This document shows, piece by piece, positions 473 to 21,365 of a stretch of DNA of 38,071 nt (positions are counted from its first letter, which is position 1; every line of letters starts with the position of its first letter). The stretch comes from Clostridia bacterium (lineage in GTDB: Bacteria; Bacillota; Clostridia; Christensenellales; Borkfalkiaceae), in assembly GCA_017623605.1 (NCBI GenBank), contig JAGAOR010000037.1, forward strand, positions 1 to 38,071, given 5' to 3'. The translations under genes and the position numbers were made by a program. The notes under the pieces are model-generated. The model had not been told where the DNA came from and did no database searches. It saw only the letters and a list, made by a program, of their open reading frames with translations.

Positions 473-501
473 TTGACAGGACGTTTTTGCTATGTTATAA
501 T
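473..501 (+). promoter_or_regulatory. strong sigma-A promoter P2 of the small-peptide unit
   Basis: A perfect TTGACA (473-478) and a perfect TATAAT (496-501) are separated by 17 bases. The resulting leader (about 508-559) contains an 8-base inverted repeat, TTTAAGCG (505-512) and CGCTTAAA (537-544). This lies just before the Shine-Dalgarno GGGAGG at 548-553. Consensus-quality boxes suggest high expression of the downstream peptides. Confidence 0.85.
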
Positions 502-559
502 GTGTTTAAGCGATAAAAGGATCGGTGTGTTTGTCGCGCTTAAAAACGGGAGGAAGAAT

Positions 560-682
560 ATGAAAAAATCTTTTGAAACGCCGATCGTAAAAGTGATTGC
601 ATTGGACAAGCAAGACGTTTTGGCGGCAGGTTCAGGCGAAGTGGAAGTGGAAAACGAAGCACATTGGACGGCTTTTTATTGA
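560..682 (+). CDS. small peptide, 40 aa, ending in WTAFY (first of three)
   Basis: The product is a 40-residue peptide with no signal sequence. Its N-terminal half has the pattern M-K-K-x-x-E-T-P-x-V-x-V-I-x-L-x-x-x-D-V-L followed by A-A-G-S-G and an acidic stretch. I recall many unannotated short Clostridia proteins with this N-terminal pattern, but have no functional assignment. The C-terminus is H-W-T-A-F-Y, with W at residue 36. The start is fixed by GGGAGG at 548-553 and the position just downstream of promoter P2. The next two genes encode lipoproteins ending in the same five-residue pattern, so the three probably belong to one system. Function is unknown; precursor of a processed or modified peptide is one possibility. 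Confidence 0.8.
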   Translation: MKKSFETPIVKVIALDKQDVLAAGSGEVEVENEAHWTAFY

Positions 683-704
683 TTCTTTATTGGTTCGGGA
701 AAAA

Positions 705-923
705 ATGAAGAAATTGTTATTGGTAATTTTTAGCGTTGCGCTTGCCGTTTTCGCGCTTGCGGCTTGTAATTTAAACAATTCTACGGATTTGGGTATTTTC
801 GAGGGCTCTTCTTCAAGCCAAGAAAGTAGCTCGTCGCAAAGCTCTTCAAGTGAAGACGAAGAAAGCAGTTCAACCAAAACGGAAGAAGACGATCAAGACG
901 AGGGTTGGACAGGTTGGTATTAA
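705..923 (+). CDS. small Ser/Glu-rich lipoprotein, 72 aa, ending in WTGWY (second of three)
   Basis: Residues 1-20 form a lipoprotein signal peptide: M-K-K, a hydrophobic core and lipobox L18-A19-A20-C21. The mature part is a low-complexity linker of serine runs and acidic residues, ending G-W-T-G-W-Y. The expected location is anchored by lipid to the outer face of the membrane, with the linker extending the aromatic C-terminus outward. The gene starts 22 bases after the first peptide gene and ends 17 bases before the next, so co-transcription is expected. The Shine-Dalgarno is weak (CGGGAA just before ATG). A longer frame reading back to 597 overlaps the first peptide gene and was not used, because the signal peptide begins exactly at 705. 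The family is not recognised. Confidence 0.8.
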   Translation: MKKLLLVIFSVALAVFALAACNLNNSTDLGIFEGSSSSQESSSSQSSSSEDEESSSTKTEEDDQDEGWTGWY

Positions 924-940
924 GTGAAAGAGGGCGAGAT

Positions 941-1063
941 ATGAAAAAAATTCTGACGATATGTTTGTGTGTGCTTGTCGGTTTGTGTTCGTTTGCCGGT
1001 TGCGCTGCAAACGACAATTCGGATAAGCCTAATGAAGATTCTGAGTGGACGGATTTTGTTTAA
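941..1063 (+). CDS. small lipoprotein, 40 aa, ending in WTDFV (third of three)
   Basis: The protein has a lipoprotein signal with F18-A19-G20-C21 as lipobox. Phe at -3 is less common, but the form is otherwise good. The mature part is only about 20 residues: a short Asn/Asp/Glu-rich stretch ending S-E-W-T-D-F-V. The Cys is at residue 21, as in the preceding lipoprotein. The Trp is five residues from the C-terminus, as in both upstream peptides. The start is supported by the GA-rich Shine-Dalgarno AGAGGGCGAG at 930-939. A clear terminator begins ten bases after the stop. Such a tiny mature lipoprotein can hardly be an enzyme; a signal peptide, surface ligand or bait is more plausible. Function is unknown. 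Confidence 0.8.
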   Translation: MKKILTICLCVLVGLCSFAGCAANDNSDKPNEDSEWTDFV

Positions 1064-1072
1064 ATGGCAACG

Positions 1073-1103
1073 CCTTTTCGGTTTTATCCGAAAAGGTTTT
1101 TTG
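1073..1103 (+). terminator. intrinsic terminator of the three-peptide unit
   Basis: A perfect 9-base-pair stem, CCTTTTCGG (1073-1081) with CCGAAAAGG (1088-1096), encloses a 6-base loop and is followed by six Ts. It closes the transcript that begins at P1/P2 and separates it from the flavoprotein gene. Confidence 0.88.
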
Positions 1104-1133
1104 TTTTCGTGCATACTAAAAGGGGGGCTATCT

Positions 1134-2036
1134 ATGACGGATTGTATTATTATAGGAAGTGGCACGGCGGGTATATCCGCCGCACTCACGCTGAAAGCAA
1201 ACGGTAAAAATTTTATCATATTCGGATCGGCTTCTCTTTCCGAGAAGATCGAAAAGGCGGAAAGCATACGCAATTATCCGGGACTTTCCAACGCTACAGG
1301 GAAAGCGTTTGTCGCCGCGCTCAAAACGCAGCTTTCAGATATGGAGATCGCGGTTACGGAAGAAAAGGTGATAGGCGTGTACGCGATGAACGATAAATTC
1401 GGCGTGGCAACGCAAAATGGAAATTACTACGAAAGTAAAGCGGTGATCCTTGCTTGCGGCGTAGAATCGGTGAAGACGATTGAGGGAGAAACGGAATTTG
1501 CAGGTAGAGGCGTAAGCTTTTGTGCAACCTGCGACGGCGCGTTGTATAAAGAAAAAACGATCGCCGTTTTTTGCACGTCCAAGCGTTTAGAACACGAGAT
1601 CGAGTATTTGGCGGGTTTTGCGAAAAAGGTCTATTTGATTCCGATGTATAAGCCCGTGGAGATTGAGAGGGAAAATATTGAAATTGTGCGAAAAATGCCC
1701 GTCAAAATTGCAGGAGAAACGCGCGTAAATAAATTGATTTTCAAGGACGGGGAATTAAAAATCGACGGCTTATTTTCCCTTCGTGAAAGCGTTTCGCCCG
1801 TAACGCTCGTAAACGACTTGAAAACGGAGGGCGGACACGTTTGCGTTACTCGAAAGATGGAAACCAATCTGAAAGGTCTGTTTGCGGCGGGCGATTGCAC
1901 GGGCAGACCGTATCAATACGCAAAAGCGGTAGGGGAAGGGAACGTAGCGGCGCACGCCGTGAGCGAATATCTTATGGGGGAAATGATGCTGAATGGAAAA
2001 GCGCAAACGGGTGATCTTACATTCCGATTTGAATAA
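1134..2036 (+). CDS. thioredoxin-reductase-like flavoprotein lacking NADPH motifs (FFTR-like)
   Basis: The 300-aa protein follows the thioredoxin reductase plan. A FAD-binding G-S-G-T-A-G lies at the N-terminus, the redox pair C-A-T-C-D-G is mid-protein, and the second FAD motif G-L-F-A-A-G-D-C is near the end, followed by Y-A-K-A-V-G-E-G. Between the CATC and the last motif, NADPH-dependent TrxR has GGGxSA and HRRxxxRA. Here that stretch reads T-I-A-V-F-C-T-S-K-R and neither motif is visible. Pyridine-nucleotide-independent, ferredoxin-linked flavin thioredoxin reductases (FFTR) of clostridia share this loss and size. I infer electron delivery from ferredoxin to a thioredoxin-like partner, although no thioredoxin gene is in view. 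The ATG at 1134 follows AGGGGGG (1121-1127). The 3' end overlaps dinB by 44 bases. Confidence 0.75.
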   Translation: MTDCIIIGSGTAGISAALTLKANGKNFIIFGSASLSEKIEKAESIRNYPGLSNATGKAFVAALKTQLSDMEIAVTEEKVIGVYAMNDKFGVATQNGNYYESKAVILACGVESVKTIEGETEFAGRGVSFCATCDGALYKEKTIAVFCTSKRLEHEIEYLAGFAKKVYLIPMYKPVEIERENIEIVRKMPVKIAGETRVNKLIFKDGELKIDGLFSLRESVSPVTLVNDLKTEGGHVCVTRKMETNLKGLFAAGDCTGRPYQYAKAVGEGNVAAHAVSEYLMGEMMLNGKAQTGDLTFRFE

Positions 2037-19171: not shown

Positions 19172-19241
19172 GCGCGGATTATAGTATTTACATTTTAGAA
19201 TGCGTGCATACAAGGGAAAACAATTTTTTTGGAGGTCTTTT

Positions 19242-19778
19242 ATGAAAAAGAGAATATCTATTTTAGCAACAGTGGCATTATGTATTACTGTGGGCAGTGT
19301 ATACGCAACGTGGACGTATGCGCAAGAAGCAGCGAACGCTTTAACCGATGTTTCGATTAATAAAACATTAGAAAGCGAATCTCTTGTTGAAAAAGGTGAC
19401 ATTGAGCTTGTTGAAAACAAGTTGAATCTTATAGTGGATAAAAAAAGTGATAGTTATCAAGCAAAGTTAATCTGCGACGGCTATATTGAAGTTACATTTA
19501 AACCACATGATTTGGCAAGTGTTACAGAAATTAATTTACAGTATGAAATCACAGGCGATAATTTAGAGTATGAAGGAGCGAATATATTCAACTTACCTGC
19601 TAGTGCCGTACAAAGTAATGGAGCAGTAAAGACATGGAGAATAAACTGTGCGGATTTAGGTATTACGATGGGCAATATTACGCTTCCTACGTACGATGAT
19701 TATAAAGCATTCAAAACGGCGTTTGAGGCTGTTTCTTTGAAAATCACGTTTAGTGAGGTGGCAGGGGCAACCGAGTAA
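19242..19778 (+). CDS. secreted protein with SipW-type signal, TasA/CalY-like candidate
   Basis: The 178-aa protein starts with M-K-K-R, a hydrophobic stretch at residues 6-19 and the motif V-Y-A-T-W-T-Y-A-Q at 20-28. Aromatic-rich motifs at this place mark substrates of SipW-type signal peptidases (TasA, camelysin). The mature part has no cysteine-rich or catalytic pattern and looks beta-rich with alternating hydrophobic residues. That fits a structural or surface protein; one Cys is near residue 145. The next gene is a SipW-type peptidase, and the third gene carries the same motif. The base composition is visibly more AT-rich than that of mnmE-gltX. The ATG at 19242 was chosen over a frame-extending ATG at 19200 because GGAGG stands at 19231-19235 and the signal peptide starts there. 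Confidence 0.78.
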   Translation: MKKRISILATVALCITVGSVYATWTYAQEAANALTDVSINKTLESESLVEKGDIELVENKLNLIVDKKSDSYQAKLICDGYIEVTFKPHDLASVTEINLQYEITGDNLEYEGANIFNLPASAVQSNGAVKTWRINCADLGITMGNITLPTYDDYKAFKTAFEAVSLKITFSEVAGATE

Positions 19779-19797
19779 TGAAAAGAGAATAAGCACT

Positions 19798-20706
19798 ATG
19801 ACAGGGTACGAAAGTTATATATTTTTGCTTTGCTTATTAGTCTTTGTTGCTTTGACGAGTATACTTGCGGCCATGACGGCAGAGTTAAGTTGTGCTTCGA
19901 TTCATTTAATAAGAAGTGGCGCGGAAGATGAAAAAATAGAGAAAAACTATAAAAAATCATTGTGTCGAAAAAAAACGAAAAGCAAGCTTTCGAAATGGAT
20001 AACGGGTATTATCAGCGGTATAGCGATTTGTCTTTTCGCATTTTCCGTGTATGTAAACGTAATGGAAAATAAATTTACGAAAAGTGTTCCTGTTTTTCGC
20101 GTAGTAAAAACAGAGTCTATGTCAAATAGAAACAAGGAAAATAAGTATTTATATGAACATAATCTTACTAATCAGTTTTCGGCGTTTGATTTGATTATAA
20201 CGCATAAAATTCCTGCCGAAAAGGATTTAGAATTATATGACGTAGTCGTTTACGAAATTGACGACATACTGCTTGTGCATCGTATTGTAGGGATTGAAGA
20301 ACCCAACGAAAAACACCCGTCCGAGCGATATTTCCTTTTGCAAGGGGACGCCGTGGGCGCGCCAGACCGCTTTCCTGTGCTATACAAACAAATGAAAGGT
20401 ATATACCGAGGGCAAAAACTTCCTTTTGTGGGAAGCTTTGTGCTATTTTTACAATCGCCTGCGGGGTATATGTGCATGGCGTTGATTATATTCGCCAACG
20501 TTGTTTTACCGATTATGGAGAAAAGAATCGACAAGGAAGAACAAAAGCGGCTTACCTTTTTATTGCGTTGTAAAAAAGACGTGAAAAAGCAAGAAAATAA
20601 GCAAGTTGTGGAAAACACTCCACCGTTAATTTTACCGCCTATCGTGTTTTATCCCGAGTATTATCCTATTCCAAATAAAGATTTCTTCCGGGGAAAAAAA
20701 CCATGA
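19798..20706 (+). CDS. SipW-type (Ser-His) signal peptidase I with extra membrane segments
   Basis: The 302-aa protein has membrane segments at about residues 8-28 and 69-87, an extracytoplasmic catalytic domain, and a third segment at about 215-238. The serine motif is T-E-S107-M-S. The second catalytic position is H161 in L-V-H-R-I-V, as in archaeal, ER and SipW peptidases, where most bacterial enzymes have Lys. The box L-L-Q-G-D-A-V-G-A-P-D (180-190) completes the fold. The first segment, separated from the second by a Lys/Glu-rich linker, is extra relative to plain SipW, and the C-terminal tail is proline/tyrosine-rich. The start was set at ATG 19798 despite a weak ribosome site (AGAGAA). 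The stop overlaps the next ATG (ATGA). It probably cleaves the two flanking secreted proteins. Confidence 0.85.
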   Translation: MTGYESYIFLLCLLVFVALTSILAAMTAELSCASIHLIRSGAEDEKIEKNYKKSLCRKKTKSKLSKWITGIISGIAICLFAFSVYVNVMENKFTKSVPVFRVVKTESMSNRNKENKYLYEHNLTNQFSAFDLIITHKIPAEKDLELYDVVVYEIDDILLVHRIVGIEEPNEKHPSERYFLLQGDAVGAPDRFPVLYKQMKGIYRGQKLPFVGSFVLFLQSPAGYMCMALIIFANVVLPIMEKRIDKEEQKRLTFLLRCKKDVKKQENKQVVENTPPLILPPIVFYPEYYPIPNKDFFRGKKP

Positions 20707-21365
20707 AATGCGCCTTATTGAAATGTTTTTTACTGTCTATTGGGTTTGTAACATTGATTTTGAGCAATCAAGTATATTCCACTTGGTGTTATGCGCAACA
20801 AAAAGTGGGTGATATAACAAGTGCGCTTTCCGCTTCGTTGCAAGTGTTTGAGTACGCACCCGAAGAGGTTCTACCCGACGATGAGGAGGGTAAAAATCAC
20901 GTTGCGTTGGTGGAGAGTTTGGTTGAGGGCGAAAACGGATTAAACAATCCCGATTCCTATTTGAATGAACAAATTAAAAGTCGTCAAAACGGCGGTTTCT
21001 TTAAGCCGAAGCGGGATACGTTAGGCAGTATGGGCGTAGACCAAGGCGACGAGCTTGAAAAGCTATTTTCCTTGGATTCAAAAAATTTATCGTTTTTAAT
21101 TCAGTTTATCAACGATAATATGTATTACATTTTTACGACAGAAGTGGATTTGGGTACAAACGGCAATCCAAACTATACAATAGGAGAAGAATATATTTCG
21201 CCTGTTTATCGTACTGTTGTGGAAAGAATCGACGGTATATGGGTATCGCAAACCAGTGCCAAAGGATACGCATTATCCGCATATTACGAAGAAAGTAACG
21301 TGTTGGGCAACGTTACCAAAATACCCTCGTTTGCCCCCGATACGTGGACGGCGGGAACGCCGTAA
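20703..21365 (+). CDS. second secreted protein with the same SipW-type signal motif
   Basis: The 220-aa protein has a hydrophobic N-terminal stretch (residues 5-21) and V-Y-S-T-W-C-Y-A-Q at 24-32, nearly identical to V-Y-A-T-W-T-Y-A-Q of the first protein. The mature sequences otherwise look unrelated. This one has an acidic segment after residue 50 (P-D-D-E-E-G-K), then a region rich in aromatic and beta-forming residues. It ends with P-D-T-W-T-A-G-T-P. I do not recognise a domain. Translation is coupled to the signal peptidase by a 4-base overlap. A structural, assembly or anchoring partner of the first protein, as TapA is to TasA, is an inference from gene order only. Confidence 0.75.
   Translation: MKCALLKCFLLSIGFVTLILSNQVYSTWCYAQQKVGDITSALSASLQVFEYAPEEVLPDDEEGKNHVALVESLVEGENGLNNPDSYLNEQIKSRQNGGFFKPKRDTLGSMGVDQGDELEKLFSLDSKNLSFLIQFINDNMYYIFTTEVDLGTNGNPNYTIGEEYISPVYRTVVERIDGIWVSQTSAKGYALSAYYEESNVLGNVTKIPSFAPDTWTAGTP

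What the first reader, a model, noticed from the sequence alone, without database searches (positions are those of the whole stretch)
473..1103. Three tiny co-transcribed genes whose products share a W-T-x-[F/W]-[Y/V] C-terminus
A 40-aa leaderless peptide and two small lipoproteins (72 and 40 aa) lie in a row between a consensus promoter and a terminator. They end HWTAFY, GWTGWY and EWTDFV, always with Trp five residues from the end. The bodies are unrelated (E-T-P/D-V-L type, Ser/Glu linker, short Asn/Asp linker), so the shared end is probably the working part. Two would be displayed at the surface and one stays inside or is exported by another route. I infer a peptide signal, a self/non-self tag or a substrate tail for a protease or modifying enzyme. 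No known system of this layout comes to mind.
Basis: partly seen in the sequence, partly recalled or inferred. Interest (0 to 1): 0.75.

Follow-up and report, generated by a model that had tools for sequence, protein, structure and literature searches.

The report
Shared C-terminal tag on surface lipoproteins
In a group of uncultured gut bacteria, a tiny cytosolic peptide and several unrelated surface proteins end in the same kind of five-residue tail, which changes in step within each genome and is linked to a peptide-modifying gene set, so it may be an undescribed tag read by one dedicated machine.

Summary
Window 473-1107 holds a 12/12 promoter, three small ORFs ending HWTAFY, GWTGWY and EWTDFV, and a terminator. 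Three same-genus species keep the operon or part of it with the tail; pairwise, tail residues are identical at 61 of 75 sites, the rest at 295 of 634. The same kind of tail ends 61 ORFs in 35 of 57 genus genomes; 57 fit W-[T/S]-x-[F/W/N]-[Y/H/F/V]-COOH. They are small lipoproteins, larger surface proteins and a few cytosolic peptides. None of these genomes mixes F/W with N; 36 of 36 within-genome pairs agree (shuffled mean 20.3). The 40-aa peptide is not leaderless: its class ([Y/F]xx[P/A] ... DVITTS) lies beside HprK-like kinase genes in 12 distant loci, 11 of them with PqqD (RRE) and S26-like genes. This genome has that machinery on another contig. In 10 of 24 slots read, a tailed anchored micro-protein lies directly upstream of the kinase. 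Best reading: the tail is the client mark of a RiPP-like kinase/RRE/peptidase/ABC system. The chemistry is unproven; my open-access searches found no description.

The parts
473..501 (+). sigma-70-type promoter, TTGACA-17-TATAAT, extended -10
   Evidence: 12 of 12 consensus matches; a consensus match, not proof of function
560..682 (+). P1: 40-aa RRE-type precursor-class peptide MKKSFETPIVKVIALDKQDVLAAGS|GEVEVENEAHWTAFY; the bar is an inferred cleavage point
   Evidence: orthologues in G012, G017, G009; same class beside HprK-like genes of distant Clostridia
705..923 (+). P2: 72-aa lipoprotein, Ser/Glu/Asp linker, C-terminus GWTGWY
   Evidence: lipobox LAAC read from the sequence
941..1063 (+). 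P3: 40-aa lipoprotein, short Asn/Asp linker, C-terminus EWTDFV
   Evidence: lipobox FAGC read from the sequence
665..679 (+). tail codons of P1 (W-T-A-F-Y)
   Evidence: pattern search
906..920 (+). tail codons of P2 (W-T-G-W-Y)
   Evidence: pattern search
1046..1060 (+). tail codons of P3 (W-T-D-F-V)
   Evidence: pattern search
1072..1107 (+). intrinsic terminator, 10-pair stem plus T run
1134..2036 (+). downstream FAD/NAD(P) oxidoreductase (Pyr_redox_2), syntenic anchor used to find the orthologous locus; probably not part of the system, since 50 of 57 genomes have it

Best explanation
P1, P2 and P3 are clients, encoded in trans, of one RiPP-like machine present elsewhere in the genome: an HprK/PEPCK-fold kinase, a PqqD-type RRE protein, an S26-like peptidase and an ABC exporter (G000 contig 10). 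The shared C-terminal pentapeptide W-T-x-[F/W]-[Y/V] is the client mark. Shown here: the tail is real, conserved, found in 35 of 57 genomes of the genus, coherent within each genome as to F/W versus other, and physically linked to the kinase gene in ten other species. Inferred: (1) P1 is held by the RRE through its F-x-x-P strand, cut near DVLAAG/S by the S26-like peptidase and exported by the ABC protein as an acidic peptide ending in the tail. (2) The kinase recognises the tail and probably phosphorylates its conserved Thr (or the terminal Tyr), as lasso kinases do at the C-terminal residue of their precursors. (3) The same mark on lipid- or membrane-anchored proteins makes part of the cell surface a substrate, or a partner, of the same system.
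For: Linkage: a tailed anchored micro-protein lies directly upstream of the HprK-like gene in 10 of the 24 genomes whose slot was read (33 genomes have the gene); 11 of the 12 anchored peptides seen in those 24 slots carry the tail, one of them as YTDNY. P1 class: 14 [Y/F]xx[P/A]...D[VI][IV]x[TAVG]S ORFs in 12 of the 80 HprK relatives fetched, all on the kinase strand and within about 2.5 kb; 5 have P and 9 have A in the fourth place. PqqD and S26-like genes lie on the same strand in 11 of those 12 loci (all but L323), including Ruminococcus torques ATCC 27756, Faecalibacterium and Pseudoflavonifractor. Machinery in this genome: PqqD, HprK-like gene 1053-1766, S26-like gene with SMLPML, ABC exporter. 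The kinase model (pLDDT 92) matches PEPCK and HprK structures. Coherence: 36 of 36 within-genome pairs agree on F/W versus other, shuffled mean 20.3; one tail per contig, 11 of 11 versus 7.2, P 0.004. The label needs 3 changes on the kinase tree, at least 2 forced by well-supported branches. G011 and G067 have purB with other neighbours, no HprK and no hits with the two tail patterns. Precedent: PadeK and PsmK phosphorylate the C-terminal Ser of the precursor (PMC9266682, passages); YxxP is the lasso RRE motif (PMC12710340, passages).
Against: The machinery is unlinked to P1-P3 in this genome. In 13 of the 24 slots read no anchored peptide lies next to the kinase (one of these, G009, is cut by the contig start), and in one (G066) the peptide has no tail; G002 has an untailed hydrophobic ORF upstream of its kinase. 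Nine HprK-positive genomes gave no tail with my patterns. P2 and P3 have signal peptides and no FxxP leader, so the RRE cannot hold them the way it would hold P1, and a cytosolic kinase would have to act before export. The P1-class peptides of the distant clusters and those in front of large secreted proteins do not carry the tail. The S26-like assignment rests on a motif and on matches below the curated cut-off. No modification, cleavage or export was observed. Eleven tail-positive genomes lack a detected HprK; ten of them also lack purB, which hints at assembly gaps, but three HprK-positive genomes (G027, G032, G062) lack purB too.
Confidence: 0.5

Rival explanations
1. The tail is an extracellular ligand. 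P1 is cut and exported as a soluble peptide, and the lipoproteins display the same end on the cell, so that one receptor or adhesin reads both (species-specific signal, decoy or self tag). The HprK-PqqD link concerns only export of the peptide.
For: Tail at the free C-terminus of long acidic or Ser-rich linkers on anchored proteins and of larger surface proteins; the variable residue also agrees within genomes, 14 of 36 pairs versus 4.9 shuffled.
Against: No receptor candidate was looked for or found; tailed anchored peptides sit next to the kinase in loci where I noticed no P1-class peptide.
Confidence: 0.22
2. The tail is a C-terminal sorting or attachment signal for surface proteins, comparable in logic to LPXTG or PEP-CTERM, with an unknown transpeptidase or protease.
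For: Many-to-one pattern: 61 ORFs with unrelated bodies share the extreme C-terminus.
Against: No hydrophobic segment or basic end follows the motif; at least 38 of the 61 have a lipobox or strongly hydrophobic segment near the start by a crude test, so many are already anchored; the cytosolic P1 also has it.
Confidence: 0.12
3. The tail is a C-terminal degron or PDZ ligand read by a membrane protease (CtpA, HtrA type), giving regulated turnover of these proteins.
For: Short hydrophobic free C-terminus; inference from known protease specificities, no call.
Against: The most variable residue is the third of the five, two before the end, unlike usual PDZ ligands (recalled, not tested); does not explain P1 or the kinase linkage.
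Confidence: 0.08
4. Recent duplication or gene conversion inside one operon copied the end without function.
For: Within the operon the P1 and P2 tails are alike in G012 and G017.
Against: Same kind of tail at unlinked loci on unrelated proteins, different codons, 20 synonymous differences in the tail sites; the reversed-pattern control gives 3 matches against 38.
Confidence: 0.03

Closest known systems
Phosphorylated lasso peptide systems (paeninodin PadeK/B1, pseudomycoidin PsmK/PsmN)
   Same: HprK-like kinase beside a PqqD-type RRE; precursor with YxxP-type leader; kinase acts on the extreme C-terminus of the precursor (PMC9266682, passages). The nearest NCBIfam model of the G017 PqqD is a lasso PqqD (E 3e-9, 36.8 of 80 bits). 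An NTP_transf_5 gene lies by one of our loci (G029)
   Different: No lasso B2 protease over cut-off in 57 genomes, S26-like peptidase instead; clients would include lipoproteins; C-terminus is an aromatic pentapeptide, not Ser
SynChlorMet cassette (ScmC/ScmD, NCBIfam)
   Same: ScmC is the nearest named relative of the G017 kinase (E 7e-8); ScmD is among the relatives of its PqqD (E 2e-5)
   Different: Scores far below the curated cut-offs (32.1 of 125 and 24.8 of 100 bits)
GlyGly-CTERM/rhombosortase, PEP-CTERM/exosortase, LPXTG/sortase
   Same: Logic of one C-terminal tag on many unrelated surface proteins paired with dedicated machinery (titles and abstract starts of PMC3237569 and PMC1569441 in the listing; LPXTG recalled)
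   Different: Tail is five residues at the very end, with no hydrophobic helix or basic stop; also on a cytosolic peptide; linked partner is a kinase/RRE operon

Membership tests
RRE-dependent RiPP precursor (for P1) | short precursor with N-terminal recognition sequence (YxxP type) | tested here: met
   F-x-x-P in P1 of G000, G012, G017 and G009; [Y/F]xx[P/A] in the distant class, 5 of 14 with P. Sequence only; binding not tested
RRE-dependent RiPP precursor (for P1) | RRE protein encoded in the same genome | tested here: met
   PF05402 in G000 contig 10, E 3.6e-16; 32 of 57 genomes, 11 of 12 of the best ones
RRE-dependent RiPP precursor (for P1) | precursor gene clustered with tailoring genes | tested here: inconclusive
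   not in the window genome; yes for the same peptide class in 12 of the 80 fetched HprK loci, 11 of them with PqqD and S26-like genes
RRE-dependent RiPP precursor (for P1) | modified and leader-cleaved core peptide | not testable with these tools
   needs mass spectrometry
Lasso peptide | B2 leader protease (PF13471) | tested here: not met
   0 of 57 genomes over cut-off, 3 weak matches below it
Lasso peptide | C-protein macrolactam cyclase | not tested
   no search done; none recognised by eye beside the operon in the loci read
HprK-like kinase (operon gene) | HprK/PEPCK fold with P-loop | tested here: met
   GRSGTGKSTHT in the sequence; model pLDDT 92; Foldseek PEPCK E 1e-6 and HprK/P E 2e-5, TM-score to query 0.3-0.6; no Pfam match
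Lipoprotein (P2, P3) | N-terminal signal with lipobox Cys | tested here: met
   LAAC and FAGC, read from the sequence and conserved in G012 and G017; lipidation itself not testable
LPXTG / PEP-CTERM / GlyGly-CTERM tags | motif followed by TM segment and basic residues | tested here: not met
   the motif is the last five residues in the 61 ORFs listed; the list was selected for that

The most novel reading that the evidence does not exclude
A genome-wide C-terminal address code: one kinase/RRE/peptidase/ABC system marks both a processed peptide and a chosen set of surface lipoproteins through a free pentapeptide tail, and the tail is rewritten in concert across its clients as species diverge, giving each species its own surface mark.
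Probability: 0.35. Interest if true: 0.9.

Novelty: categorically new. Interest (0 to 1): 0.74.

Why it matters
If right, RiPP-type recognition and tailoring is not confined to small natural products but also acts on, or shares its code with, part of the cell-surface proteome. The tail gives a simple sequence handle (W-T-x-[FN]-Y-stop) to find candidate clients in a genome, and its concerted F/N switching makes the recognising partner findable by co-variation. It also gives a testable role to a micro-peptide class ([Y/F]xx[P/A] ... DVITTS) for which the members I scanned had no NCBIfam match over cut-off (ten peptides besides P1) and P1 no Pfam match.

Tried and rejected
Family look-ups of P1-P3 gave nothing for P1 and only matches below cut-off, mostly to lipoprotein and low-complexity models, for P2 and P3. 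In NCBIfam, two tailed P1-class peptides and eight more gave no match, except weak ones below cut-off for two of the eight (FxLYD domain, E 0.05; lasso_cyano, E 0.18).

The first tail pattern, over 61 genomes, gave many chance matches (many end in TGG). Outside the genus only that pattern was searched; W-T-x-N-Y was not. In the seven same-order loci I opened (L060-L062, L064, L065, L067, L072) the only tailed ORFs were two of 36 and 24 aa ending WTRWY without a ribosome-binding site.

Idea that large secreted proteins downstream of P1-class peptides share the tail: rejected; the six that I read to their ends do not. In 11 of the 15 untailed loci a signal-peptide protein follows closely; the others are L004 (about 500 nt away), L007 (peptide ORF unclear), L014 (ABC transporter) and L021 (another gene).

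Idea that tail-negative genomes use another obvious tail on InlB-repeat proteins: not seen in the C-termini read from ten genomes, eight of them HprK-positive, but few complete ORFs were available.

Presence/absence of HprK against tails in the 34 genomes that retain purB: 22 of 30 HprK-positive and 0 of 3 HprK-negative genomes have tails, P 0.03; 0.09 if G010 is added. G069's purB is cut, so only G011 and G067 are clear absences. Suggestive only.

Limits of the coherence test: the 61 ORFs came from 47 hand-chosen loci, and the regular expression included odd tails already seen. Four of the 61 do not fit W-[T/S]-x-[F/W/N]-[Y/H/F/V]: WTGIY, WGGQY, WTPHL, YTDNY. Two pattern searches over all 57 genomes are less biased. 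F pattern: 20 matches, 15 verified as ORF ends, in 7 genomes; 5 rejected (TGG or no ORF); 9 control matches. N pattern: 38 matches, 36 with a true stop, in 24 genomes; 33 verified, 3 not opened, 2 rejected; 3 control matches. No genome is in both sets; P 0.016 without correction for kinship. Relatedness inflates all these figures.

Literature: DVITTS, DVITAS, DVIxTS, DIITTS anywhere, 0 papers; PqqD/HPr kinase combinations and C-terminal tag combinations listed no paper that describes this system by title or abstract start. Only open-licence papers are held. I saw listings and, for PMC10368454, PMC12710340 and PMC9266682, passages only.

Full report
What is in the window. A single transcription unit is likely: a perfect sigma-70-type promoter at 473-501, three small ORFs, then a terminator at 1072-1107. 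P1 (560-682) has no signal peptide. P2 (705-923) and P3 (941-1063) have short hydrophobic signals and lipoboxes LAAC and FAGC. The ends are HWTAFY, GWTGWY and EWTDFV.

Orthologues. A search of 61 genomes with P1 gave clear relatives in G012 and G017 and a weaker one in G009 (E 0.07), all of the same genus. G012 and G017 keep all three genes (WTAFY, WTAFY, WTDFH; WTGFY, WTGFY, WTDFH); G009 keeps P1 and one lipoprotein (WTKFY, WTGWY), there in front of dinB. Over pairwise comparisons the tail is identical at 25 of 30 (P1), 23 of 30 (P2) and 13 of 15 (P3) sites, the remainder at 98 of 197, 136 of 331 and 61 of 106. W and T never change in these sequences, while 20 synonymous codon differences lie in the tail sites.

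The tail in the genus. Patterns for W-T-x-F-[Y/H]-stop and W-T-x-N-Y-stop over all 57 held genomes gave 20 and 38 matches, against 9 and 3 for the reversed patterns. I verified 15 and 33 of them as the ends of ORFs; 5 and 2 were rejected, and 3 of the second set were not opened. Together with loci found in other ways, 61 tailed ORFs in 35 genomes are listed; 57 of them, in 34 genomes, fit W-[T/S]-x-[F/W/N]-[Y/H/F/V]. They include small lipoproteins, List_Bact_rpt/InlB-repeat proteins, an LRR_5 lipoprotein (G029), an M23-peptidase lipoprotein (G012) and a beta-helix protein (G017), plus P1-like peptides in G000, G012, G017, G009, G005 and G018 and a weaker one in G014. Thirty-eight of the 61 have a lipobox or a strongly hydrophobic stretch in the first 75 residues by a crude test; for many of the others the fetched DNA or my start choice leaves out the N-terminus. 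No similarity between the main classes was seen other than the end.

Concerted change. Upstream of the oxidoreductase that follows the window operon, G005 has three genes ending WTSNY, WTSNY and WTSNF; G008 has WTPNY and WTPNF; G031 has WTPHL and WTPNF; G061 has WTQNY and WTGNY. So the ends of neighbouring genes change together while bodies are replaced. In the listed set the F/W-versus-other class agrees in 36 of 36 within-genome pairs (shuffled mean 20.3, none of 20,000 as high); with one tail per contig it is 11 of 11 against 7.2 (P 0.004). The variable residue agrees in 14 of 36 pairs against 4.9 (P 0.0004), and in 4 of 11 against 1.5 with one per contig (P 0.05). The last residue shows no excess over all pairs (23 of 36 against 25.3) and a small one with one per contig (11 of 11 against 8.4, P 0.02). 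On a tree of the kinase (30 rows, 22 labelled; G063 was left out because its gene was not read as one ORF) the F/N label needs 3 changes and well-supported branches force at least 2. Kinship among genomes inflates these numbers, but a repeated switch shared by unrelated proteins is hard to explain without a common reader of the tail.

Link to a machine. P1 resembles peptides of the form MKKxYxxPxVxVhxxxxxDVITAS. Because YxxP is the recognition motif of lasso-type RREs (PMC12710340, passages), I searched for PqqD. It occurs in 32 of 57 genomes, with a second weak hit only in G032, and in 11 of the 12 best assemblies. It sits in an operon: HprK-like kinase, PqqD, S26-like peptidase with an SMxPML motif, ABC exporter. 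The kinase and the peptidase have no Pfam match; the peptidase matches signal peptidase models only below cut-off. The window's own genome has the operon on contig 10, kinase 1053-1766 and PqqD 1797-2060. The kinase model matches PEPCK and HprK/P structures.

Two independent connections tie the finding to this operon. First, in 10 of the 24 genomes whose slot upstream of the kinase was printed (of 33 with the gene), a small anchored protein lies there ending WTNNY (G006, G020), WTKNY (G065, and G022 with a second one, WSKNY), WTGNY (G027), WTDNY (G035, G014), WTNNH (G016), WSDFY (G032) or YTDNY (G071). In G066 the slot lipoprotein ends EEWN, and 13 genomes have none (G009 is cut by the contig start). 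Second, among 80 loci fetched with the kinase alignment, 12 distant ones hold 14 P1-class ORFs ([Y/F]xx[P/A], then D[VI][IV]x[TAVG]S) on the kinase strand; 5 have P and 9 have A in the motif, and 13 of 14 have a ribosome-binding-site-like sequence, as none of the 10 other matches of the same expression does. Profiles of the genus PqqD and S26-like proteins find both genes on the same strand in 11 of these 12 loci, all but L323. They include R. torques, Faecalibacterium and Pseudoflavonifractor; two of those checked (L292, L312) have a radical SAM/SPASM gene beside the peptide. None of the 14 peptides ends in the tail.

Presence and absence. HprK is found in 33 of 57 genomes. Of the 35 tail-positive genomes 24 have it; 10 of the other 11 also lack the usually adjacent purB gene. 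That hints at missing regions in those assemblies, but G027, G032 and G062 have HprK without a purB hit, so it is no proof. G011 and G067 keep purB with other neighbours, have no HprK and gave no hits with the two tail patterns. Nine HprK-positive genomes gave none either. The association is therefore suggestive, not strict.

Mechanism proposed. [quoted passage not shown] PMC9266682, passages). The simplest reading is that the kinase reads the free C-terminal tail and modifies its Thr or its terminal Tyr; that the RRE serves P1 through its leader; that the S26-like enzyme cuts after the small residues of the DVITAS-type motif; and that the ABC protein exports the acidic core. All of this sentence is inference. 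Why lipoproteins carry the same tail is the open point: they may be modified before export, or may display the tail for the same partner outside.

Membership. P1 fits an RRE-type precursor by leader and by machinery in the genome, but binding and modification are untested. It does not meet the lasso definition: no B2 protease over cut-off in 57 genomes; the cyclase was not searched for. The tail is not an LPXTG, PEP-CTERM or GlyGly-CTERM signal, since no hydrophobic segment or basic end follows it.

Verdict. Real, more than chance, and broader than described. I rate it categorically new because I know of no described tag of this layout and found none in the searches named, although every component belongs to a known kind. 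Confidence in the link to the HprK-PqqD system is about two thirds; in tail modification by the kinase about one third; the explanation as a whole is put at 0.5.

Noticed in passing
window 19200-21365: Three adjacent genes look like a SipW-type signal peptidase between two TasA/camelysin-like secreted proteins (...VYATWTYAQ...). Recognised by eye from memory; Pfam gave no match.
   Followed up: partly
L005, L006, L009, L011, L012, L015-L018, L020, L022: Untailed P1-class peptides (YxxP...DVITAS type) lie directly before large signal-peptide proteins, several of which share, by eye, a G-[AIV]-x-[IVL]-R...G-[ILM]-R-F segment near the start.
   Followed up: partly
L292, L302, L312: In Faecalibacterium, Pseudoflavonifractor and a relative, the HprK-PqqD-S26 cluster with a P1-class peptide also has a gene of the radical SAM/SPASM kind (tested for L292 and L312; by eye for L302). 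The L302 and L312 peptides contain TWSNQ(N/S)GV and end GLTAS. Looks like an unnamed RiPP cluster.
   Followed up: no
L248 248-2116 (G021): A 622-aa lipoprotein upstream of the oxidoreductase ends WGGQY, in a genome with no HprK, PqqD or purB found; possibly a decayed tail.
   Followed up: no
G000 contig 44, L014 1477-1593: A second YxxP peptide of the window genome (...IIVDDWYE) precedes an ABC transporter gene and lacks both the DVITAS motif and the tail.
   Followed up: no
L114 1648-6651 (G035): A 1667-aa secreted protein behind a P1-class peptide has a sub-threshold Hint/pretoxin-Hint match near its C-terminus.
   Followed up: no
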